From Bacteroidales bacterium (GTDB lineage Bacteria; Bacteroidota; Bacteroidia; Bacteroidales; UBA932): DNA of 64,000 nt. The translations under genes and the position numbers were made by a program. This document shows, in pieces, positions 1,522 through 57,110 of this stretch. The stretch spans positions 1 to 64,000 of the forward strand of contig JAGDBO010000022.1 in NCBI GenBank assembly GCA_017959005.1. Reading direction: 5' to 3'. The notes beneath the pieces are model-generated. The model was not told the DNA's origin. It saw nothing but the letters and a program-made list of their open reading frames with translations, and did no database searches. Position 1 is the first letter of the stretch, and each line of letters starts with the position of its first letter.

Positions 1522-3989
1522 CGCAGTTCTGCTCCAAAACGTTCTTTGAAGAGGCGGAGGAGCTTTTCCATTATTGCGTCAACTGCCTTATCAGTCAGCG
1601 TCTTATCTGGATCCTGGAGATGGAAGCTGATAGCGTATTGCTTCTTGCCCTGAGGAATCTTGTCACCCGTGTAGACATCAAAGAGCACAACGTTGGTAAG
1701 GAGTTTCTTCTCTGCCTGATATGCAGCGTTTCTGAGTTCAGCAAAGGAGACTTTGTAGTCCAGCAGAAGTGCCAAATCTCTCTTAACCTCCGGGAAGCGA
1801 GGCAGTTCCGTAAACTTAACGGAGTTCTTCTTAACCTTAGCCAGAAGAACATCCCAGGAGAACTCTGCAGCGTAAACTTTCTGCTTAATACCAAACTGTT
1901 TGGTAAGACGCTGACTTACTGTTCCCATAACAACAATCTCCTTACCGTTTGAACGGAGTTTGTAGGAGAGACCGTCTGAGAAGATATCTGAAGGAGCACC
2001 CTCATAATCAAGGTCTTTGAGCTCTATACCAAAGCTCTTGAGAAGGAGTTCTACATATCCCTTGAGAGAGAAATAATCTCCGCTTACCGTCTTGTTTCTC
2101 CAACCTTTGAGTCCTTCACCGGTAACAAAGAGAGAGAGTTTTGGACGCTCAGTGTAAGCCTTAAGAGTGCTTCTCTCCTCATCTGTCTTTTTGTACTCAG
2201 GGTTGAAAGAGTAAACGTTACCCATCTCATAGAGTTTAAGTTGGGTAACCTGGCGGTTGATATTGTATGCAACAACCTCCAAACCATTGAACAGCAGTGT
2301 CTGACGCATTGCGTTAAGATCTGAACTGAGTGGGTTGCAGATCATAACACAGTTGTTCTGCGGATATGTTTTCAGATTCTCATAGTATGCGCTCTTGGTA
2401 AGAGAGTTGTTCATCATCTCCATAAAACCGTTGGCTGTCAGAGTCTGGCAGGCACTCTCCCTAATCTTCTCAGGATCAGGGTGTGCGGTAATGTTTACGG
2501 AGCACTTCATACTCTGAGGCAGCGGAACGTTGTTGTATCCGTAAATTCTCAGAACATCCTCCACTACGTCACACTCTCTGTAAACGTCTACCCTGTAGGT
2601 AGGTACCTTAACGGTGCAACCCATCTCAGTGCGGTTAACAAACTCCATCTCCAGTGAGGTGAGAATCTGTTCAATCTTCTCCTTGCCCAATTTGCAACCC
2701 ATAAGTGACTCCATACGGGCATAATCCAGCTCAACCACCTTCTTCTCGATTGGTCTGGAAATCACATCCTTAACCTCTCCTACAATCTCTCCGCCTGCCA
2801 GCTCCTGAACAAGCAGGGCAGCTCTTCTGAGAGCGTATGGAACCATATTAGGGTCACATCCTCTCTCAAAGCGGAATGATGCCTCAGTCTTAAGTGTATG
2901 ACGCTTGGATGTCTTTCTTACCAGAACAGGGTTAAAGTATGCACTCTCAAGGAATACGGAGGTTGTGGAGTCACTTACTCCACTCTCCTGTCCGCCGAAT
3001 ACTCCTGCAATGCACATTGGCTCCTTCTCGTTGCAGATCATAAGATCAGTTGCAGAGAGTTCTCTTTCCACACCGTCCAGTGTGGTGAATTTTGTTCCCT
3101 CCTTGCAGAAATCCACAACAATCTTGTTACCCTTAATCTTCTCAACGTCAAAGGCGTGGAGAGGATTACCCGTCTCAATAAGAATGAAGTTGGTAATATC
3201 TACAATGTTGTTTATAGGACGGAATCCTACGGAGAGAAGTTTCTTCTTCATCCACTCCGGAGACTCCTTAACCTTTACTCCCTTAATGGTAACTCCGCTG
3301 TAACGAGGTGCTCCGTCCGGCTGATTTACAATAACTTCCACAGCCTCAGCGGAAGGTTTACCCTCCTTGAATGCTGCAACAGAAGGAGTTGTAAGTTCTC
3401 CTCCAAGGTTGTTAAGTTTAAGCCATGCACTCAGATCTCTTGCTACGCCTATAAATGAGGCTGCGTCTATTCTGTTAGGAGTCAGACCAATAGTGTATAC
3501 GGTATCACACTTAAGGTTGAAGTAATCCTTTGCCGGTGTTCCAACTTTGGTCTCTGATGGAAGCACCATAATGCCTGCGTGGTCAGTACCAACTCCCAAC
3601 TCATCCTCTGCGCAAAGCATTCCGAATGACTCAACACCACGGATTTTAGATCTCTTAATCTTTACATCCTCTCCTCCAATCACAAGTTTGGTATTGAGGG
3701 TGGCCAACATAACCTTCTGACCTTTAGCAACATTAGGAGCGCCGCACACTACCTGGAGCAGTTCTCCCTCTCCGGTGTTGACCTTTGTAACGTGCAGGTG
3801 GTCTGAGTTAGGATGGGGTTCACACTCCACAACCTCAGCAACAATAACTCCGGCCAATCCGCCTGGAATCTCTTCCACAACATCCTGATGCTCAACCTCC
3901 AGGCCTATGTTTGTCAAAGCGGAAGCAACCTCGTCCGCATTGAGGTCAAACTTCACATACTCTTTTAGCCAATTGTAAGAAATATCCAT
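1518..3989 (-). CDS. pheT: Phenylalanine--tRNA ligase beta subunit
   Basis: The beta chain of the alpha2-beta2 phenylalanyl-tRNA synthetase edits mischarged Tyr-tRNA and binds tRNA. In the 823 residues the order is: an N-terminal EMAP/OB tRNA-binding domain (about 40-150, with ECEPHPNSDHLHV), the B3/B4 editing module, B5, the catalytic-like domain and a C-terminal ferredoxin-fold anticodon-binding domain (from about 730, LPRFPEVKRDLALLL). The length is typical. pheS is not in the window. It follows ftsY by 11 nt on the same strand and probably shares its transcript. Confidence 0.97.
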   Translation of the reverse strand: MDISYNWLKEYVKFDLNADEVASALTNIGLEVEHQDVVEEIPGGLAGVIVAEVVECEPHPNSDHLHVTKVNTGEGELLQVVCGAPNVAKGQKVMLATLNTKLVIGGEDVKIKRSKIRGVESFGMLCAEDELGVGTDHAGIMVLPSETKVGTPAKDYFNLKCDTVYTIGLTPNRIDAASFIGVARDLSAWLKLNNLGGELTTPSVAAFKEGKPSAEAVEVIVNQPDGAPRYSGVTIKGVKVKESPEWMKKKLLSVGFRPINNIVDITNFILIETGNPLHAFDVEKIKGNKIVVDFCKEGTKFTTLDGVERELSATDLMICNEKEPMCIAGVFGGQESGVSDSTTSVFLESAYFNPVLVRKTSKRHTLKTEASFRFERGCDPNMVPYALRRAALLVQELAGGEIVGEVKDVISRPIEKKVVELDYARMESLMGCKLGKEKIEQILTSLEMEFVNRTEMGCTVKVPTYRVDVYRECDVVEDVLRIYGYNNVPLPQSMKCSVNITAHPDPEKIRESACQTLTANGFMEMMNNSLTKSAYYENLKTYPQNNCVMICNPLSSDLNAMRQTLLFNGLEVVAYNINRQVTQLKLYEMGNVYSFNPEYKKTDEERSTLKAYTERPKLSLFVTGEGLKGWRNKTVSGDYFSLKGYVELLLKSFGIELKDLDYEGAPSDIFSDGLSYKLRSNGKEIVVMGTVSQRLTKQFGIKQKVYAAEFSWDVLLAKVKKNSVKFTELPRFPEVKRDLALLLDYKVSFAELRNAAYQAEKKLLTNVVLFDVYTGDKIPQGKKQYAISFHLQDPDKTLTDKAVDAIMEKLLRLFKERFGAELR

Positions 3990-4000
3990 ATTTACTCTTT

Positions 4001-4996
4001 TTAATTTTTTTCCTCTTTAAATAACGCCTCCACAAAATCCTCTCTGCTAAAGACTTTCAGCTGGTCTACCTGCTCGCCTACTCCTATGAACTTAACCGGA
4101 ATGTTGAACTGGTCTGCAATACCGATGACCACTCCGCCCTTGGCAGAGCCGTCCAACTTGGTGATAGCCAGTGAGGTAACCTGGGTTGCCTTGGAAAACT
4201 CCTTGGCCTGGTTAAAGGCGTTCTGCCCTGTAGAACCGTCAAGTACCAACATCACATCGTGAGGAGCATCAGGCACCACCTTAGCCATAACGTTCTTAAT
4301 CTTAGTGAGTTCGTTCATCAATCCCACCTTGTTCTGAAGTCTTCCGGCGGTATCTATCAGCACTACGTCCACTCCCTTTGCAGCAGCGGAAGAGACTGTG
4401 TCATAAGCAACTGCGGCTGGATCTGCCCCCATCTGCTGCTTAACAATCTCAACACCGGCTCTCTGAGCCCAGATATCCAACTGCTCCACCGCAGCGGCAC
4501 GGAAAGTATCCGCAGCGCCAATCATCACCTTCTTGCCGTTCTGCTTTAAAAGTGAGGCAATCTTCCCGATGGTGGTAGTCTTACCTACTCCGTTAACTCC
4601 CACAACCATAATTACATATGGCTTCTTGGAGAAATCAAACAGACGGCTGTTCTCCTTAAAGGCGTTCTCAACCAACTCATCATCAGAAACGCCGCTCGTT
4701 GAAGAGGCGGAGAGCATATCAGAGATCTCCTCCTTTAGAATCTCCATCACCTTCTCCGTGGAGAGATTCTTCTCTTTCTCAACTCTTTGCTGCAGTCTCT
4801 CTATGATTTTTGTCGTAGTAGCAATGCCCACATCGGAAGTAATGAGCGCCTCCTCAATATCTTCCAACACATCCTCATCCACGCTGCTCTTTCCCATAAT
4901 AGCTCTTGCTATCCTTGAGAAGAAACCTCTTCTTGTGGAGGAGAGCCCTAAATCCAGGGCTGAATCAGATTTTTTCTTTCTAGAGAAAATTCCCAT
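4001..4996 (-). CDS. ftsY: Signal recognition particle receptor FtsY
   Basis: FtsY is the membrane-associated SRP receptor GTPase that docks ribosome-nascent-chain complexes to the Sec translocon. The 331-residue protein has a very short basic N-terminus instead of the long acidic A domain of E. coli, then the helical N domain (about 25-110) and the G domain. The P-loop is GVNGVGKT at 133-140, followed by DTFRAAAVEQL, DTAGR and TKLDGSAKGG. Its promoter overlaps the terminator of the upstream unit. Confidence 0.97.
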   Translation of the reverse strand: MGIFSRKKKSDSALDLGLSSTRRGFFSRIARAIMGKSSVDEDVLEDIEEALITSDVGIATTTKIIERLQQRVEKEKNLSTEKVMEILKEEISDMLSASSTSGVSDDELVENAFKENSRLFDFSKKPYVIMVVGVNGVGKTTTIGKIASLLKQNGKKVMIGAADTFRAAAVEQLDIWAQRAGVEIVKQQMGADPAAVAYDTVSSAAAKGVDVVLIDTAGRLQNKVGLMNELTKIKNVMAKVVPDAPHDVMLVLDGSTGQNAFNQAKEFSKATQVTSLAITKLDGSAKGGVVIGIADQFNIPVKFIGVGEQVDQLKVFSREDFVEALFKEEKN

Positions 4997-5017
4997 ATCA
5001 CGCTCAGAATAAGATTA

Positions 5018-5049
5018 CAAATATAAACAAAAAAGACTTCAGGAGCAAT
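5018..5049 (-). promoter_or_regulatory. Promoter of ftsY-pheT
   Basis: On the minus strand a -33 element ATTG (5046-5049), a 20-nt spacer and a perfect -7 element TATATTTG (5018-5025) lie just upstream of ftsY. The -33 box falls in the loop of the terminator hairpin at 5032-5061 and the spacer includes its 3' arm. Confidence 0.7.
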
Positions 5050-5061
5050 CCTGAAGTCTTT
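5032..5061 (-). terminator. Intrinsic terminator after the rpmB-rpmG-DUF4295 unit
   Basis: A perfect 13-bp inverted repeat (5032-5044 and 5049-5061, arm AAAGACTTCAGGA) has a 4-nt loop. On the minus strand it is followed by a T-rich run. It lies 21 nt beyond the DUF4295 stop codon. Confidence 0.85.
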
Positions 5062-52053: not shown

Positions 52054-52110
52054 CCTAATTACTAGCCTACTTTACCTTAATACTGGCTTACAACGCCTTA
52101 ATTACTGGTC
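52054..52110. repeat. Degenerate 21-bp tandem repeats
   Basis: Units starting at 52054, 52075 and 52096 share CCTTAATTACTGGC-like sequence. The last runs into the end of the lipoprotein gene, and the stop codon at 52098 lies in it. Confidence 0.5.
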
Positions 52111-52604
52111 TTCTTTTTCTTAAGTTTTAAGGTTCCCTCAATTTTGCAAGCTCCTTCATACCAACCATTTCCTGGCTCTAGTTGAACAGGCTCTACATGT
52201 ACAGAATCATTTGAGAAAACACCGTTTAAAGAAGGATTGTCAGATTCTCTGTAAACCAAATATGTCTCCCCGGATTTAGGGTATGAAAAAACGGTTTCCG
52301 TAGTATCTATAATTCCCTGGTTATTAGTCTTTTGTCTAATGGAATAAATCTCACCTACCGGATCTACATAATAACTTGGAGTATAATGGGTTCCCGGGAC
52401 TACTGTTCTAACTCTTATTTTTGCATTCTCAATTGGAGTGTTCTGATCATTAACAACAGTAGCCTTTATTGTGATTTTTGCGTATGGAGAACCATACATA
52501 GCTAACATCTCCTCCTTATCCTTCTTGGAGCAAGAGGTAAAACCAAGTATAGCCAGAAGACCAACCATCAAGAACTTGAAAAATGAAATCGTTTTCTTTG
52601 CCAT
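52098..52604 (-). CDS. rSAM-system putative lipoprotein, copy 1
   Basis: The 168-residue lipoprotein has lipidated C25 (FTSC) followed by SKKDK. The mature protein starts with MYGSPYA (36-42), then a carboxypeptidase-regulatory-like beta domain (ITIKATVVNDQNTPIENAKI) and a C-terminal block with NDSVHV...WYEGACKIE. These match the lipoproteins at 53908 and 55472 that accompany the radical SAM gene, and the Bacteroidota rSAM/lipoprotein family. It lies outside the plus-strand operon and points away from it. Its first 30 codons and about 20 nt upstream are nearly identical to those of the 55472 gene. Confidence 0.8.
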   Translation of the reverse strand: MAKKTISFFKFLMVGLLAILGFTSCSKKDKEEMLAMYGSPYAKITIKATVVNDQNTPIENAKIRVRTVVPGTHYTPSYYVDPVGEIYSIRQKTNNQGIIDTTETVFSYPKSGETYLVYRESDNPSLNGVFSNDSVHVEPVQLEPGNGWYEGACKIEGTLKLKKKKTSN

Positions 52605-52637
52605 AATTTTTTCAGCTGGTTACAATAATACAAAGAT

Positions 52638-52684
52638 TAAGCAAAAGTCTAAGCAAAAGTCTAAGTCAAAAGTCTAAGTCAAAG
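52638..52684. repeat. 12-13-bp tandem repeats upstream of lipoprotein 1
   Basis: Three full units (TAAGCAAAAGTC twice, then a 13-bp variant) and a partial fourth lie in the leader or promoter region of the 52098-52604 gene. Such runs can change length by slippage. Confidence 0.8.
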
Positions 52685-52687
52685 ATA
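52680..52687 (-). promoter_or_regulatory. -7 box for lipoprotein 1
   Basis: Minus-strand TATCTTTG matches TAnnTTTG and overlaps the last tandem repeat unit. No -33 match is visible. Confidence 0.35.
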
Positions 52688-52795
52688 AAAAACATATTCC
52701 CAATAATCATCATTAAAGTCAACTTTCTACTTCCCAGATGTGCTATCTGAGCCAACTATTGTTCTTCTATCTTAATATGCAGACATTGAAACCCC

Positions 52796-52913
52796 GCAAA
52801 AGTGTGCAAGGTGTCCCACTTTCGGCACCACCTTGCACATTATACCCCCAAAAACGTGCAAGGTGTCCCACTTTCAGCACCACCTTGCACACTTTCAACC
52901 TCTAAAACTATCG
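52796..52913 (-). repeat. REP doublet, left copy, with transposase 3'-end remnant
   Basis: Two 35-nt palindromic REPs (52804-52838 and 52856-52890) lie 17 nt apart in the same orientation, each with arms GTGCAAGGTG/CACCTTGCAC. The whole stretch is an inverted copy of 56994-57110. Positions 52891-52913 match, in reverse, the last codons of the transposase gene. Together with the repeats and promoters listed it fills most of the 359-nt gap between lipoprotein 1 and hicA. Confidence 0.88.
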
Positions 52914-52928
52914 AAAAAAGAAAATCAT

Positions 52929-52959
52929 TTTGTTTGTAACTAAAATTTAGTTACATTTG
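52929..52959 (+). promoter_or_regulatory. Promoter of hicAB
   Basis: TTTG (52929-52932), a 19-nt spacer and TACATTTG (52952-52959), both perfect. The start site would fall at or within a few bases of the hicA GTG, so the message may be leaderless. Confidence 0.8.
52936..52954. promoter_or_regulatory. Palindromic operator in the hicAB promoter
   Basis: GTAACTAAA-A-TTTAGTTAC is a perfect 9-bp inverted repeat around one base. It fills the spacer and overlaps the -7 box. HicB antitoxins with a ribbon-helix-helix domain repress their own operon, so this is the expected binding site. Confidence 0.75.
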
Positions 52960-52963
52960 CGCC

Positions 52964-53224
52964 GTGGGAACCAAAGAAAAACTAGTTGAACGATTTAAAC
53001 GCCTTCCCAAAGACTACACATTTGATGAAGCGGAGAGGTTGCTGACTTCCTTTGGATATATCAAATCCAACAAAGGGAAGACTTCAGGCTCACGGGTGCT
53101 ATTTTCAAAGTCTAACAAACTGCCTATTTTTTTGCATAGACCACACCCTCAGAAGACCTTAAAGGAATATGCTATTAAACAGATATTAAACGAATTAATT
53201 AGAAATGGAGATATAGAATTATGA
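52964..53224 (+). CDS. hicA: HicA toxin (GTG start)
   Basis: HicA is a small double-stranded-RNA-binding-fold mRNA interferase. The 86-residue protein begins at GTG with the family N-terminus MGTKEKLVERFKRLPKD, has KGKTSGSRV, and keeps the catalytic histidine (H58) in FLHRPHP. The GTG is about 5 nt past the -7 box. It overlaps hicB by 4 nt (ATGA). Confidence 0.93.
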   Translation: MGTKEKLVERFKRLPKDYTFDEAERLLTSFGYIKSNKGKTSGSRVLFSKSNKLPIFLHRPHPQKTLKEYAIKQILNELIRNGDIEL

Positions 53225-53748
53225 ATACGCTTAAATATAAAGGTTATATTGGATCTGTTAATTACAGTGAACCGGATAAGGTTTTCTTTGGAAAACTGGA
53301 AGGCATTGACGGTTTGGTAAACTATGAAGGTGAGTCTGTTGCAGAACTTACTGCTGCATTCCATGAAGCAGTGGAAGATTACCTTGCATTCTGTGATGAC
53401 CACGGTGTTAAACCGGAAAAGAGTTATACCGGAACATTTAATGTCCGCATTTCTCCGGCAACTCACAGAGATATTGCAATCCTTGCCACAGAGGCGGGAA
53501 TATCCATTAATGCATTTGTAAAAAAGGCTTTGGACCAAGCAGTTAAAAACTCTGCAGAAGAGGCCGAAATCCGTCCTATTCCCAAAAGATATCCAGTTCA
53601 TTCTGAAATGCAGATGACTACTCTTCATGAGCCAAAGGTTGCCTATGGAAATAAGGAAATTCTAGAAGTAACAATACCTTCAAAAGAAGTTAAGTTAGCC
53701 AAGGACCTTTTTAATAAGCTCGGCTGGAATTATGAATTGTGCGGGTAA
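53221..53748 (+). CDS. hicB: HicB antitoxin with extra C-terminal tail
   Basis: HicB neutralises HicA and represses the operon. Order: partial-RNase-H-like HicB domain (about 1-70, YKGYIGSVNYSEPDKVFFGK), a ribbon-helix-helix DNA-binding segment (about 77-110, FNVRISPATHRDIAILATEAG), then about 60 residues not usual in the family. At 175 residues it is longer than the common 110-140. Its last 9 nt run into the 3' end of tRNA-Leu on the other strand. Confidence 0.92.
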   Translation: MNTLKYKGYIGSVNYSEPDKVFFGKLEGIDGLVNYEGESVAELTAAFHEAVEDYLAFCDDHGVKPEKSYTGTFNVRISPATHRDIAILATEAGISINAFVKKALDQAVKNSAEEAEIRPIPKRYPVHSEMQMTTLHEPKVAYGNKEILEVTIPSKEVKLAKDLFNKLGWNYELCG

Positions 53749-53821
53749 AGGGACTCGAACCCCCACGACTTACGTCACCAGATCCTAAGTCTGGCGCGGC
53801 TACCAATTACGCCATACCCGC
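53740..53821 (-). tRNA. tRNA-Leu (anticodon UAG)
   Basis: The minus strand folds into a class II tRNA: acceptor GCGGGTA/TACCCGC, anticodon stem CCAGA/TCTGG with loop CTTAGGA (anticodon TAG, complement of 53785-53787), a long variable arm, T loop TTCGAGT and discriminator A. No CCA is encoded. UAG reads CUN leucine codons. Confidence 0.95.
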
Positions 53822-53832
53822 AAATGCGGATG

Positions 53833-53863
53833 CAAAGGTAATTTTTTTCTTCAGAAAGACAAA
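53833..53863 (-). promoter_or_regulatory. Promoter of tRNA-Leu
   Basis: On the minus strand, TTTG (53860-53863), a 19-nt spacer and TACCTTTG (53833-53840), both perfect. Confidence 0.75.
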
Positions 53864-53868
53864 TTGTG

Positions 53869-53876
53869 TAAATTTG
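53869..53876 (+). promoter_or_regulatory. -7 box for the lipoprotein 2-radical SAM operon
   Basis: TAAATTTG matches TAnnTTTG 31 nt before the lipoprotein start, with only TTTT at the -33 position. It is divergent from the tRNA promoter, with the boxes 5 nt apart. Confidence 0.45.
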
Positions 53877-53907
53877 TGCAGTTAACAACCTTACGCTTGA
53901 AACTCAG

Positions 53908-54354
53908 ATGAGAAAATTATTCAGAACAAAGAGAAGAAAGATATTAACGGCACTTTTGGGAATTCTTGGAATCAGTTCTCTTATGGGTTGCGGTATGTAT
54001 GGAAGCCCTTATGCTAAAATAAAAATAAGGGCAAGCGTTGTGGATGAGAGCAATAATCCGGTTCCGGGGATAAAGTTGGAATTGAAAGATTTAAACCAAA
54101 ACTACAGGCGTTGGGAGATTACTACAGATAATAACGGAGAGTTTAAAAAGGACTATACTGGCCTTGATTGGCGTCTTGAGGAGGGCGCCAATGTAGTCTT
54201 CTATGAGAAAAACAATAAGTCTGTAACTGATAAGTATGTGGATGATTCTCTGAGAGTTATCAACAAAAAGACTAAATCTGGCGGTAAAATGAAAAATTCA
54301 TGGTATGAAGGCACATACCGCATGGAATTTACAATGAAACTTAGGAAAAAATGA
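53908..54354 (+). CDS. rSAM-system putative lipoprotein, copy 2
   Basis: The 148-residue lipoprotein has a basic N-region (RKLFRTKRRK) and lipidated C28 followed at once by GMYGSPYA. The beta domain KIRASVVDESNNPVPGIKLE and the C-terminal VDDSLRV...WYEGTYRME block are shared with the other two copies. The stop overlaps the radical SAM start by 4 nt (ATGA), so the two are translationally coupled, which supports a substrate-enzyme relation. The signal peptide differs from that of copies 1 and 3. Confidence 0.85.
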   Translation: MRKLFRTKRRKILTALLGILGISSLMGCGMYGSPYAKIKIRASVVDESNNPVPGIKLELKDLNQNYRRWEITTDNNGEFKKDYTGLDWRLEEGANVVFYEKNNKSVTDKYVDDSLRVINKKTKSGGKMKNSWYEGTYRMEFTMKLRKK

Positions 54355-55430
54355 GAGGATTACCGTTTAGAACCTGGCTGGCCTGTGAGATAGAACGGAA
54401 AGTCAGGCACTTGGATATAAAGGAGCACAAACTCAAACAGCTCTTTTGGGAGTGCACCCTCTCCTGCAATCTCAACTGCCGTCACTGCGGAAGCGACTGC
54501 AAAAACCTGCCTGCATCTGCAGCTATGAAGAGAGAGGATTTCTTAAAAGTGTTGGATTCCGTAAAGGCTTACAGCCAGAAAGTTGGAGATGATATAGGGA
54601 GTATTCTGGTAATCCTGACTGGGGGCGAACCGCTTATGCGTCCAGACTTGGAAGAGTGCGGAAGAGAGATTATCAAAAGAGGCTTTCCTTGGGGAATGGT
54701 AACCAATGGATATGCAATGACTCCAGATAAGTTCAAAAGACTGCTTGCCGCGGGATTGCACTCAATGACAGTAAGTTTGGACGGCCTTAAGGAATCTCAC
54801 GATTGGATGAGAGGAAGGGCCGGTAGTTTTGAAAGAGCTCTTTCTGCCATTAAACTGGCCGTCAAAACAGACTTGGCGTTTGACGTGGTTACTTGCGTTA
54901 ACCAACGTAACTATACAGAACTTGAGCAGATTAAGGAACTATTAATCTCTATAGGTCTTAAGAGTTGGAGGCTCTTTACCGTCTTCCCTTCCGGCAGAGC
55001 GGAGAATGATCCAATGTTACAACTTGATAATGAGCGTTTCCGCGGTGTAATGAACTTCATTGAAGCAACAAGGAAAGATGGACGGATACAAACAAGTTAT
55101 GCTTGTGAAGGATTCCTGGGTCCTTTGGAGGGCAGGGTCCGCAATAACCTTTTCAGATGCCATGCGGGAATTAACGTCGGTTCTGTTCTCAGTGACGGAT
55201 CCATCTCTGCATGTGTAAGTATCAGAGCGGATTACAACCAGGGGAATATCTACAAGGATGACTTTATGGAGGTATGGAACAACCGGTTCCAGCCATATAG
55301 AGACCGCTCCTGGATGAAGAAAGATGAGTGCGGAAGCTGCAAGTTCTTCCGCTTCTGCGAGGGAGGTGGAATGCACTTAAGAAATTCAGACGGCTCCCTT
55401 AAGTTCTGCCATCTGGATAGACTCAAATAG
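54351..55430 (+). CDS. Radical SAM/SPASM enzyme of an rSAM/lipoprotein system
   Basis: A 359-residue cytoplasmic iron-sulphur enzyme. The AdoMet [4Fe-4S] motif is C39-NL... as CNLNCRHC (C39, C43, C46), followed by the GGEP motif (LTGGEPLM). The C-terminal half has the SPASM-type cysteines: CEGF, RCHAG, SACVS, then CGSCKFFRFCEGG and a last FCHLD, binding auxiliary clusters. SPASM enzymes modify ribosomally made peptides. Here the candidates are the adjacent lipoproteins. The family corresponds to the Bacteroidota rSAM/lipoprotein system. The modification is unknown. Confidence 0.9.
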   Translation: MRGLPFRTWLACEIERKVRHLDIKEHKLKQLFWECTLSCNLNCRHCGSDCKNLPASAAMKREDFLKVLDSVKAYSQKVGDDIGSILVILTGGEPLMRPDLEECGREIIKRGFPWGMVTNGYAMTPDKFKRLLAAGLHSMTVSLDGLKESHDWMRGRAGSFERALSAIKLAVKTDLAFDVVTCVNQRNYTELEQIKELLISIGLKSWRLFTVFPSGRAENDPMLQLDNERFRGVMNFIEATRKDGRIQTSYACEGFLGPLEGRVRNNLFRCHAGINVGSVLSDGSISACVSIRADYNQGNIYKDDFMEVWNNRFQPYRDRSWMKKDECGSCKFFRFCEGGGMHLRNSDGSLKFCHLDRLK

Positions 55431-55445
55431 TTTGGAGCGGTTTTT

Positions 55446-55561
55446 GTAACGAACTGAAAAAAAAAGAAATTATGGCAAAGAAAACGATATCTTTATTCAA
55501 GTTCTTGATGGTTGGCCTTCTGGCTTTACTTGGTTTTACTTCTTGCTCTAAGAAAGATAAG
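55446..55561 (+). repeat. Conserved leader block shared by lipoproteins 1 and 3
   Basis: This block (about 26 nt upstream plus 30 codons) matches the minus strand of 52515-52623 with few changes, while the rest of the two genes has diverged strongly. Confidence 0.8.
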
Positions 55562-55960
55562 AAAGAATTAGTCTGTATGTACGGTACTCCTGAAGCTACC
55601 CTTCATATTAATGTTAAAGTAGTTGATACTGATGGTAATCCAGTTAGTAATGCAAATCTAGCTTTGAGTTACAACAACGTTCCAAATAATATTTACTTTT
55701 TAGGTCCTTTTTACAAGCCAACGGGAATTGATGGAAAAATTGTAGGTGAATTTAGATCTGCTTCCTTTATTCCTGATTATTCAAAATTTGATATTCATCT
55801 AGTCTATTATAAGAAGCTTAACCCAGATTTAGAGAATAAATACAAAGATGATTCTGTAAAAGTCTCATTTATAAAGATTAAAGATCCAAGCGGTAGCTGG
55901 GATCAGGGTACCTATAGAATGGAAGGTGGAACCTTAACTTTAAAGGAGAATAAAGAATAA
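55472..55960 (+). CDS. rSAM-system putative lipoprotein, copy 3
   Basis: The 162-residue lipoprotein has a signal MAKKTISLFKFLMVGLL and lipidated C25, then SKKDKKELVC with a second cysteine (C35), MYGTPEA (36-42), a beta domain (LHINVKVVDTDGNPVSNANL) and the end block KDDSVKV...WDQGTYRME. It follows the radical SAM gene by 41 nt on the same strand. The signal and its upstream sequence are nearly those of copy 1; mature parts are only distantly similar. Confidence 0.83.
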   Translation: MAKKTISLFKFLMVGLLALLGFTSCSKKDKKELVCMYGTPEATLHINVKVVDTDGNPVSNANLALSYNNVPNNIYFLGPFYKPTGIDGKIVGEFRSASFIPDYSKFDIHLVYYKKLNPDLENKYKDDSVKVSFIKIKDPSGSWDQGTYRMEGGTLTLKENKE

Positions 55961-56136: not shown

Positions 56137-57012
56137 ATGAAGGGTATGAAGTATTGGTTGGTCACAACAGAGCATCTGAAAGAGAGACTCTTATTCAATG
56201 ACTCAGATGATTTCAAGGCGGGTATGAACTATGTTGCACTATGTTCACAGTTACCGCATATCAAGATCATGGCATTCATTCTCATGTCAAATCACATTCA
56301 TTTTGTTCTGGAGTGTGAATTAGCTGACGCAGAGGCCTTTGTGCTGAAATTCAAAAAGTTGTATTCTCAGTATTACAGTCATAAATATTCTTATAAAGAG
56401 CTACTGAGGAAAAGTATGGTAGATTATAAGGAGATTTATTTAAGCGATGATTCCTTTATAAATGCCATAGCATACGTGCAGATGAACAGCGTTGCTGCAA
56501 ACTTAGTTTTTGATTCTTTCTCTTATCAGTGGGGCACAGGCAGTTCTTTCTTTGGAGAAAAACCGCTTAACATCAAACATTTAGGAGACCTCTCTGCAAG
56601 GAAGAGAGCGGTTATAATGCATAGTCGAGAACCATTGCCTTCACATTTTTGGGTTCATGAGGATGGGTATATTCTCCCCTCTTCATACGTAGACGTAAGG
56701 TTTGTAGAATCTGTATTTAAGACTCCGAACAGAATGCGCTTCTTCCTAAACAAATCATCCAAGGCTAAAATTTCCCAGAACAGAAACACCATATCTCCTA
56801 CGTTCAATGACCAATTTTTAGTATCAGCAGTTTCTGTTTTATGTAAGTCTGTCTTTAAAACTCAGTCTATTGAGGAACTATCGGAGAGTCAACTGGCCGA
56901 ATTAGTGAGACAGCTGCGCTACAGATTTTCTGCCGGAATAAATCAAATCTCCCGTGTGCTCAACATCTCTCTGGAGAGAACCTCTCTTATTCTCGATAAT
57001 TTTAGAGGTTGA
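56137..57012 (+). CDS. REP-associated tyrosine transposase (RAYT)
   Basis: The 291-residue HUH nuclease is related to IS200/IS605 TnpA. The HUH pair is H53-I-H55 in SNHIHFVLE, and candidate catalytic tyrosines follow in KLYSQYYSHKY (76-84). A C-terminal segment of about 130 residues with a helix-turn-helix-like end (AGINQISRVLNISLERTSLI) fits RAYT proteins. Such enzymes process the REP palindromes that flank them, found here 4 nt after the stop. It is intact, single-copy in the window and has no IS200-type ends. Confidence 0.88.
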   Translation: MKGMKYWLVTTEHLKERLLFNDSDDFKAGMNYVALCSQLPHIKIMAFILMSNHIHFVLECELADAEAFVLKFKKLYSQYYSHKYSYKELLRKSMVDYKEIYLSDDSFINAIAYVQMNSVAANLVFDSFSYQWGTGSSFFGEKPLNIKHLGDLSARKRAVIMHSREPLPSHFWVHEDGYILPSSYVDVRFVESVFKTPNRMRFFLNKSSKAKISQNRNTISPTFNDQFLVSAVSVLCKSVFKTQSIEELSESQLAELVRQLRYRFSAGINQISRVLNISLERTSLILDNFRG

Positions 57013-57110
57013 AGTGTGCAAGGTGGTGCTGAAAGTGGGACACCTTGCACGTTTCGGTGGGTAAAATGTGCAAGGTGGTGCTAAAAGTGGGACACCTTGC
57101 ACACTTTTGC
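56994..57110 (+). repeat. REP doublet, right copy
   Basis: Two 35-nt palindromic REPs (57016-57050 and 57068-57102), 17 nt apart, begin 4 nt after the transposase stop codon. The first is the exact reverse complement of 52856-52890. The inverted match to the left copy continues back into the last transposase codons (56994) and forward to 57110. Confidence 0.88.

What the first reader, a model, noticed from the sequence alone, without database searches (positions are those of the whole stretch)
52098..55960. Radical SAM enzyme with three lipoproteins, two of which share a frozen leader but not a mature domain
A SPASM-type radical SAM gene is translationally coupled to one lipoprotein, followed by a second, with a third divergently placed 1.7 kb away. 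All three carry MYG(S/T)P(Y/E)A near the mature N-terminus and a DS(L/V)xV...W(Y/D)(E/Q)G block at the end. Copies 1 and 3 keep nearly identical DNA for about 20 nt upstream and 30 codons (signal peptide through SKKDK) while the rest diverged. A conserved leader with variable cargo is what a leader-recognising modification enzyme would select for; gene conversion is the alternative. This would be modification of a lipoprotein before export, rarely described.
Basis: partly seen in the sequence, partly recalled or inferred. Interest (0 to 1): 0.72.

Follow-up and report, generated by a model that had tools for sequence, protein, structure and literature searches.

The report
Radical SAM enzyme with XYGxP lipoproteins
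A radical iron-sulfur enzyme in this Bacteroidota genome sits beside exported, mostly lipid-anchored proteins that share one short motif (X-Tyr-Gly-x-Pro), and it probably rewrites the protein backbone at that motif before export, as the known 'spliceases' do at X-Tyr-Gly; this is not yet shown by experiment.

Summary
In detail: a SPASM radical SAM gene (54351-55430) overlaps lipoprotein copy 2 and is followed by copy 3; copy 1 is divergent. NCBI already catalogues the pair as TIGR04133/TIGR04134, function unknown. The conserved element is not the leader. Copies 1 and 3 share a leader through local recombination (dS 0.40 in codons 1-30, 2.03 in the rest), since kept by purifying selection; copy 2 has another leader. 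What partners share is X-Y-G-x-P: of 81 loci with TIGR04133 over cut-off (68 of 295 genomes of the order), 72 have an exported-type same-strand YGxP ORF, from 58-residue lipoproteins to stalks ending in the motif. In 96 domain-type partners Y is kept in 91 and G in 93, lipobox Cys in 87. [quoted passage not shown] PlpXY acts on MYG, the form in all three window copies. TIGR03913-like relatives have XYG peptides near 69 of 80 enzymes. Best reading: a splicease-like enzyme acting on lipoprotein precursors. Chemistry is untested, tree kinship is favoured but not proven, and no RRE partner was found.

The parts
54351..55430 (+). Radical SAM/SPASM enzyme, 359 aa, TIGR04133 family
   Evidence: NCBIfam TIGR04133 539.7 bits (cut-off 425); Pfam Radical_SAM 82 bits and SPASM 32.5 bits
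53908..54354 (+). Lipoprotein copy 2, overlaps the rSAM start (ATGA); lipobox LMGC, then C-G-M-Y-G-S-P-Y-A
   Evidence: TIGR04134 58.5 bits; sequence
53998..54008 (+). YGSP codons of copy 2 (proposed modification site M30-Y31-G32)
55472..55960 (+). Lipoprotein copy 3; lipobox FTSC, then SKKDKKELVC-MYGTPEA
   Evidence: TIGR04134 64.8 bits
55580..55590 (+). YGTP codons of copy 3 (M36-Y37-G38)
52098..52604 (-). Lipoprotein copy 1; lipobox FTSC, then SKKDKEEMLA-MYGSPYA
   Evidence: TIGR04134 88.8 bits
52486..52496 (-). YGSP codons of copy 1 (M36-Y37-G38)
55472..55561 (+). Leader tract of copy 3 shared with copy 1 (82 of 90 bases)
52515..52604 (-). Leader tract of copy 1 shared with copy 3

Best explanation
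The rSAM enzyme (TIGR04133) is a maturase for exported proteins that carry an X-Y-G-x-P motif, here lipoprotein copies 1-3 (MYGSP, MYGSP, MYGTP). It acts on the precursor in the cytosol, before export and lipidation, at X-Tyr-Gly. [quoted passage not shown] The product would be an electrophilic ketoamide displayed at the cell envelope, perhaps as a protease inhibitor or covalent anchor. Shown here: the gene pairing, the motif, its conservation and its independence of the rest of the protein. Inferred: direct modification, the site, the chemistry, the order relative to export, the role.
For: (1) 72 of 81 TIGR04133 loci have a same-strand YGxP ORF with a hydrophobic (export-type) stretch before the motif, within about 4 kb; in 64 its stop lies directly before the enzyme. 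Within 1.5 kb YGxP occurs in 94 of 497 same-strand export-type ORFs, 1 of 547 opposite-strand and 5 of 580 farther ones. (2) The partners differ in much else: 58-71 aa lipoproteins, coiled-coil-like or low-complexity stalks, some ending in the motif, up to three motifs each; of 10 tested non-classical partners (9 beside TIGR04133 genes, one beside the rSAM of L181) none passes the TIGR04134 cut-off. (3) In 96 domain-type partners Y is kept in 91, G in 93, lipobox C in 87, P in 80; only one domain glycine (96) is kept better. (4) In this genome all Thr/Ser-coding matches to the YG(S/T)P pattern away from the two TIGR04133 genes (39) were read; none lies in a recognisable exported protein. (5) G263 keeps a TIGR04134 lipoprotein (79.7 bits), has no TIGR04133 (best 46 bits, all candidates scored), and reads N-G-S-P-Y-A where others read Y-G-S-P-Y-A, with the C-terminal W block intact. 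(6) Published spliceases act at XYG; PlpXY's natural sites are MYG and LYG, and of its tags two with GYGLPI (YGxP) were spliced inside FtsZ (PMC10533398, passages; PMC11002830, passage). (7) Of 80 relatives found (5 scanned, all best to TIGR03913) 69 have a short same-strand XYG ORF near; L181, a relative, has a neighbour with repeated KYGYPC. (8) Tree: TIGR04133 plus TIGR03913/4103-like against the other SPASM-type rows, support 94/86.
Against: The tree does not exclude other placings: TIGR04133 held with AhbD-like enzymes p-AU 0.085; TIGR03913/4103 held with AhbD-like p-AU 0.10. By profile score TIGR04103 is only the fourth-best other family of the window enzyme (121 bits, after TIGR04053 149, AhbD 148, NirJ2 126), far below its own cut-off of 725. 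PlpX works with the RRE protein PlpY; no RRE-like hit among the ten window proteins tested. The SPASM domain lacks the second Cys of CX3C in 88 of 88 members and has extra invariant Cys, C50 and C252. G199 has no TIGR04133 (all candidates scored) yet its secreted TIGR04134-type protein keeps YG (QYGA). In three of 81 loci I saw no YG partner (L094, L099, L122). Paralogues without YG exist beside the enzyme (L081, L144, L149). LYGLPI versions of the published tag, tried in FtsZ, were not accepted by PlpXY. No mass data exist here.
Confidence: 0.52

Rival explanations
1. The enzyme does act at the YG motif but with another chemistry: a Tyr side-chain crosslink (for example a three-residue cyclophane from Tyr to the residue two further on), oxidation, epimerisation or an alteration of Gly or Pro.
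For: Motif conservation alone does not fix the chemistry; the SPASM cysteines differ from those of the TIGR03913 relatives, and the AU test allows other placings.
Against: The residue two after Tyr varies widely and includes Gly (3) and Pro (4) among 117 automatically collected motifs, which does not suit a cyclophane; X before Tyr varies freely, as in XYG splicing; YG is what spliceases need.
Confidence: 0.3
2. The YG motif is a docking or sorting signal in these exported proteins, and the rSAM enzyme modifies another part or another molecule.
For: G199 keeps YG without the enzyme; a few partners beside the enzyme lack YG.
Against: The motif is tied to the enzyme gene, not to export-type ORFs in general (1 of 547 opposite-strand and 5 of 580 farther ORFs), is repeated within single partners (14 ORFs with more than one YGxP), and reads N-G in G263, which lacks the enzyme.
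Confidence: 0.12
3. One reading: the enzyme recognises a frozen leader (signal peptide to SKKDK) and the cargo is free to vary.
For: Copies 1 and 3 share the leader with dN/dS about 0.07; signal peptides exceed domains in identity in 11 of 16 plausible paralogue pairs.
Against: Copy 2, coupled to the enzyme, has a different leader (7-8 of 25 residues); synonymous sites of the leader are also young (dS 0.40 against 2.03), so the tract was copied; pairs from different loci show nearly the same excess (237 of 399); partners with unlike leaders share XYGxP. CSKKDK(E/K)E also resembles, not exactly, the surface-export signal C-X-K-(D/E)2 of Capnocytophaga lipoproteins (PMC5080379, passages).
Confidence: 0.06

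Closest known systems
TIGR04133 / TIGR04134 (NCBIfam: rSAM_w_lipo and radical SAM-associated putative lipoprotein)
   Same: Enzyme and all three lipoproteins exceed the curated cut-offs; pairing and lipoprotein nature already catalogued.
   Different: The models give no function and describe one partner type; here the partner set is widened to other exported proteins that share XYGxP.
PlpX-type spliceases / spliceotides (Pleurocapsa PlpXY; IPR026482 per PMC11002830)
   Same: SPASM radical SAM enzyme paired with proteins that hold an X-Tyr-Gly motif; MYG is a natural PlpXY site.
   Different: Partners are exported, mostly lipoproteins, not nif11 or nitrile-hydratase leader peptides; no RRE partner found; SPASM Cys pattern altered; tyramine excision not shown.
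TIGR03913 (GDL motif peptide-associated radical SAM/SPASM maturase)
   Same: Related enzyme; short XYG ORFs near 69 of 80 relatives.
   Different: About 475 aa with a C-terminal extension; the ORFs are short, without signal peptide, of the type YGVxIxxAIASGDL.
Anaerobic sulfatase-maturating enzyme (anSME)
   Same: SPASM rSAM enzyme; as I recall it modifies proteins that are then exported, in Bacteroides too (recalled; only a reference title seen).
   Different: Recalled motif C/S-x-P-x-R and formylglycine product; the window enzyme matches anSME chains weakly (27-28 bits).

Membership tests
TIGR04133 | Score above the curated cut-off of 425 bits | tested here: met
   539.7 bits
TIGR04134 | Score above the curated cut-off of 39.8 bits | tested here: met
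   88.8, 58.5 and 64.8 bits for copies 1, 2, 3
PlpX-type splicease | Radical SAM with SPASM domain | tested here: met
   Pfam PF04055 and PF13186 above gathering scores; one canonical SPASM Cys missing
PlpX-type splicease | Partner protein(s) with an X-Tyr-Gly motif | tested here: met
   MYG in all three window copies; YGxP partner in 72 of 81 loci
PlpX-type splicease | Membership of the PlpX sequence subclass (IPR026482; I recall it as TIGR04103, cut-off 725) | tested here: not met
   121.1 bits to TIGR04103; tree kinship favoured but not proven. PlpX itself was not obtained
PlpX-type splicease | RRE partner (PlpY) | tested here: not met
   No RRE/PqqD-like hit among the ten window proteins tested; a short or divergent RRE, or one elsewhere in the genome, could be missed
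PlpX-type splicease | Precursor with nif11 or nitrile-hydratase leader | tested here: not met
   Copies carry signal peptides with lipobox; no such leader model hit
[quoted passage not shown]
   Needs mass spectrometry
SPASM domain, canonical Cys pattern | Full CX2CX5CX3C...C set (pattern recalled) | tested here: not met
   C327, C330, C336 in 88 of 88 and C353 in 87 of 88; the CX3C second Cys is G, A or S in 88 of 88

The most novel reading that the evidence does not exclude
TIGR04133 enzymes are a second, widespread branch of protein-splicing radical SAM enzymes that cut tyramine out of lipoproteins before export, so that many bacteria of this order display alpha-ketoamide warheads on their envelope, in one subtype (CYGxP) formed on the very cysteine that receives the lipid.
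Probability: 0.42. Interest if true: 0.82.

Novelty: new variant of a known kind. Interest (0 to 1): 0.62.

Why it matters
It gives a catalogued but unexplained enzyme-lipoprotein pair a precise, cheap test: one residue triplet, one expected mass change. If right, backbone editing reaches lipid-anchored proteins in a large group of Bacteroidota, with an electrophilic group at the cell envelope that could inhibit proteases or make covalent bonds.

Tried and rejected
Leader recognition as the main logic: rejected, see rivals. C-terminal W block as the target: rejected because W is present in 51 of 96 partners, stays intact in the enzyme-less G263, and is not seen at the C-terminus of the short partners printed. 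A genome-collection scan for the PlpA2-type sequence PIRPLYGLPI, back-translated, found nothing, so PlpX itself was not obtained; relatives found served instead. Structure prediction was not accepted, so there is no fold comparison. Solved structures: best PDB match by sequence 66 bits over residues 46-210 only (cytosylglucuronate decarboxylase). Promoter and terminator scan: fewer sites than in shuffles. A Pfam scan of short partners never ran (searches failed); only NCBIfam was used for them. Papers: a search for TIGR04133 and one for TIGR04134 and its names found none; tyramine + radical SAM + Bacteroidetes + lipoprotein found none. The 2018 and 2022 splicease papers (Morinaka; Scott) are not held, so whether Scott 2022 already lists TIGR04133 is unknown. 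In the own-genome pattern search (69 matches) I picked by eye the 39 off-locus matches that code for Thr or Ser and read them (34 regions); the other 30 are the four known partners and 26 coding for Arg, Cys, Trp or stop. One short frame (L334) has a hydrophobic stretch before YGSP but no start codon with room for a signal peptide. YGVP, YGAP and other forms were not sought genome-wide. Searches score at most 12 and 6 first-look candidates a genome, so their counts are lower bounds; G199 and G263 were rechecked with all candidates.
Full report
WHAT IS THERE. The window holds a SPASM radical SAM gene (54351-55430) overlapping lipoprotein copy 2 (53908-54354) by ATGA, copy 3 (55472-55960) after it, and copy 1 (52098-52604) on the other strand. 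NCBI's curated models already name the pair: TIGR04133 (539.7 bits, cut-off 425) and TIGR04134 (88.8, 58.5, 64.8 bits, cut-off 39.8), both without stated function. The genome, a 1.8 Mb assembly 86% complete, has these three TIGR04134 genes and a second TIGR04133 gene on another contig (448 bits), preceded by a 69-residue lipoprotein reading FQA-C-YGTPQGY that matches no NCBIfam model at E 0.01.

THE LEADER. Copies 1 and 3 share 82 of the first 90 coding bases and, with a 7-base gap, some 20 bases upstream. Synonymous divergence is 0.40 in codons 1-30 and 2.03 in the rest; dN is 0.03 and 0.74. The tract was therefore copied between the genes well after they diverged and has been under purifying selection since; only 19.5 synonymous sites bear on this. 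Copy 2, the one coupled to the enzyme, has a different leader (7 to 8 of 25 residues). In 16 plausible paralogue pairs of my loci (four chance pairs of 20 left out by eye) signal peptides are more alike than domains in 11; in 399 random pairs from different loci this holds for 237, so the excess is slight. CSKKDK(E/K)E resembles, without matching exactly, the surface export signal C-X-K-(D/E)2 (PMC5080379, passages read).

THE MOTIF. In 295 genomes of the order, 43 have TIGR04134 over its cut-off, 68 have TIGR04133 over its cut-off, 40 have both, 9.9 expected (the 40 were matched by hand). Of the three exceptions G247 has a 355-bit TIGR04133 relative; G199 and G263 have none, confirmed with all candidates scored (best 50 and 46 bits). 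I fetched the neighbourhoods of all 82 TIGR04133 genes over cut-off as 81 loci (and the window). An automatic scan found a same-strand export-type ORF within 1.5 kb with YG in 77 of 81 and with YGxP in 70 of 81; with a range of about 4 kb and a looser filter 72 of 81, 64 directly upstream of the enzyme, 18 loci with two or more. Of the nine left, by reading: five have YG without that Pro (L112, L113, L129, L137, L143), L116 has three C(I/V)YGPPPG repeats in a protein without signal peptide, and in L094, L099, L122 I saw none. Background: YGxP in 94 of 497 same-strand near ORFs, 1 of 547 opposite-strand, 5 of 580 farther (Fisher p 1.7e-31 and 8.0e-28). These ORFs are mechanical stop-to-stop frames with a crude hydrophobicity filter.

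The partners are otherwise varied: TIGR04134 domain proteins; CYGxP proteins in which YG follows the lipobox Cys at once, some distantly like TIGR04134 (L118, 31 bits); 58-71 residue lipoproteins (L111, L104, L092); coiled-coil-like or low-complexity stalks ending in the motif (L103 ...MTKYGIPKYNEPIAEYGVPSNTY, L117 with three motifs, L092 and L084 with it at the very end); and secreted proteins apparently cut before QYG (L095). Among 117 motifs collected automatically from 88 loci (a few evidently false, such as an antisense frame of copy 1) X is C 30, E 24, K 19, M 11, V 11, A 7, L 7, others few; the residue after G is T 46, V 18, S 16, A 9, also G 3 and P 4. In 96 domain-type partners G of the motif is kept in 93, Y in 91, lipobox Cys in 87, P in 80; one domain glycine is kept in all 96. 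Six rows lack YG: L140 is a mis-set start; L081, L144, L149 are extra copies beside a YG-bearing one; L156 is away from any enzyme gene in G117, which has TIGR04133 elsewhere; L158 is in G263, which lacks TIGR04133 and has NGSPYA in place of YGSPYA. Against this, G199 also lacks the enzyme and keeps QYGA in a secreted protein. Both are draft assemblies 94-95% complete.

WHAT IT RESEMBLES. PlpX, with the RRE protein PlpY, excises tyramine from Xaa-Tyr-Gly and leaves an alpha-keto amide (PMC11002830, passage read). PlpXY's natural sites are MYG and LYG; the loss is C8H9NO; two FtsZ insertions holding PIRPGYGLPI (YGxP) were spliced, while others, among them the LYGLPI forms, were not (PMC10533398, passages read). 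A review reports the reaction to be broad in bacteria and to confer protease inhibition (PMC10373908, passages read, citing Scott 2022, which I could not read). All three window copies have MYG.

KINSHIP OF THE ENZYME. None of 395 genomes of the phylum has a TIGR04103 match over its cut-off of 725, but ten have relatives at 1e-40. Two of these (Flavobacterium-like) sit by about 60-residue peptides with AYG, PYG or LYG, and one (L181) by a protein with repeated KYGYPC. A scan of named genomes returned 80 relatives. Of nine proteins scanned, the six of the long type score best to TIGR03913 (four over its cut-off of 591.75; two Flavobacterium-type at 534-536), second to TIGR04103, with TIGR04133 third or fourth. 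In 69 of the 80 loci a short ORF with YGxx(I/M/V/L)xxA lies near on the same strand; 86 of 2,294 same-strand and 1 of 2,844 opposite-strand ORFs have it. In a tree of 62 proteins TIGR04133 (29 rows, eight of them below its cut-off) and TIGR03913/4103-like (15 rows) form one side of a branch against 18 other rows with support 94/86. This is not conclusive: AU tests do not reject TIGR04133 with AhbD-like rows (p 0.085) or TIGR03913/4103 with them (p 0.10), and by profile score TIGR04053, AhbD and NirJ2 stand nearer to the window enzyme than TIGR04103 does. In 88 TIGR04133 sequences the second Cys of the SPASM CX3C is absent, while C50 and C252 are invariant. Outside the order the family is rare: in 395 genomes of the phylum three match at 1e-90, the window's own, one of its order, and one outside its class (G454), whose upstream protein reads EYGV.

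CONCLUSION. The enzyme most likely modifies exported proteins at X-Tyr-Gly, and tyramine splicing is the best-supported chemistry because XYG with free X is what that reaction needs and because the nearest peptide-modifying relatives found are likewise paired with XYG. Site and pairing are supported by counts; chemistry, timing and role are inference. Within this genome the off-locus YG(S/T)P matches lie in frames that do not look exported, so its exported YG(S/T)P proteins appear to be the three copies and the 69-residue CYGTP lipoprotein.

Noticed in passing
52793-52895 and 57000-57110, with 56137-57012 (+): Paired palindromic repeats (GTGCAAGGTG...CACCTTGCAC) in inverted orientation flank the whole cassette (99-nt arms, 94% complementary); 9 exact copies of the 16-nt core in the genome, 4 of them here. 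A REP-associated tyrosine transposase-like gene (37 bits to NF047646, below its cut-off of 80) lies beside one pair: a REP/RAYT-like arrangement.
   Followed up: partly
52964-53748 (+): HicA toxin and HicB antitoxin genes (Pfam PF07927 38 bits, PF05534 67 bits) between lipoprotein copies 1 and 2.
   Followed up: no
53739-53821 (-): tRNA-Leu gene just upstream of lipoprotein copy 2.
   Followed up: no
L181 (G145:C3:220000-227000), 2928-5056: A 483-aa rSAM enzyme with middling scores to TIGR03913, TIGR04103, AhbD and TIGR04133, followed by a 216-aa protein with repeated KYGYPC units and no NCBIfam match: a possible multi-core XYG substrate with Cys.
   Followed up: partly
L116, 2040-2393 (-): A 118-aa protein without signal peptide, with three near-identical C(I/V)YGPPPG repeats, overlapping the end of a TIGR04133 gene.
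   Followed up: no
L083, L086, L088, L091, L096, L101, L102, L106: Coiled-coil-like lipoproteins with one to three (V/L)YG(S/T/P)PE-type motifs, often in an RExxxxYG context, beside TIGR04133 genes; a partner type unlike TIGR04134 (two of them, L083 and L086, scanned).
   Followed up: partly
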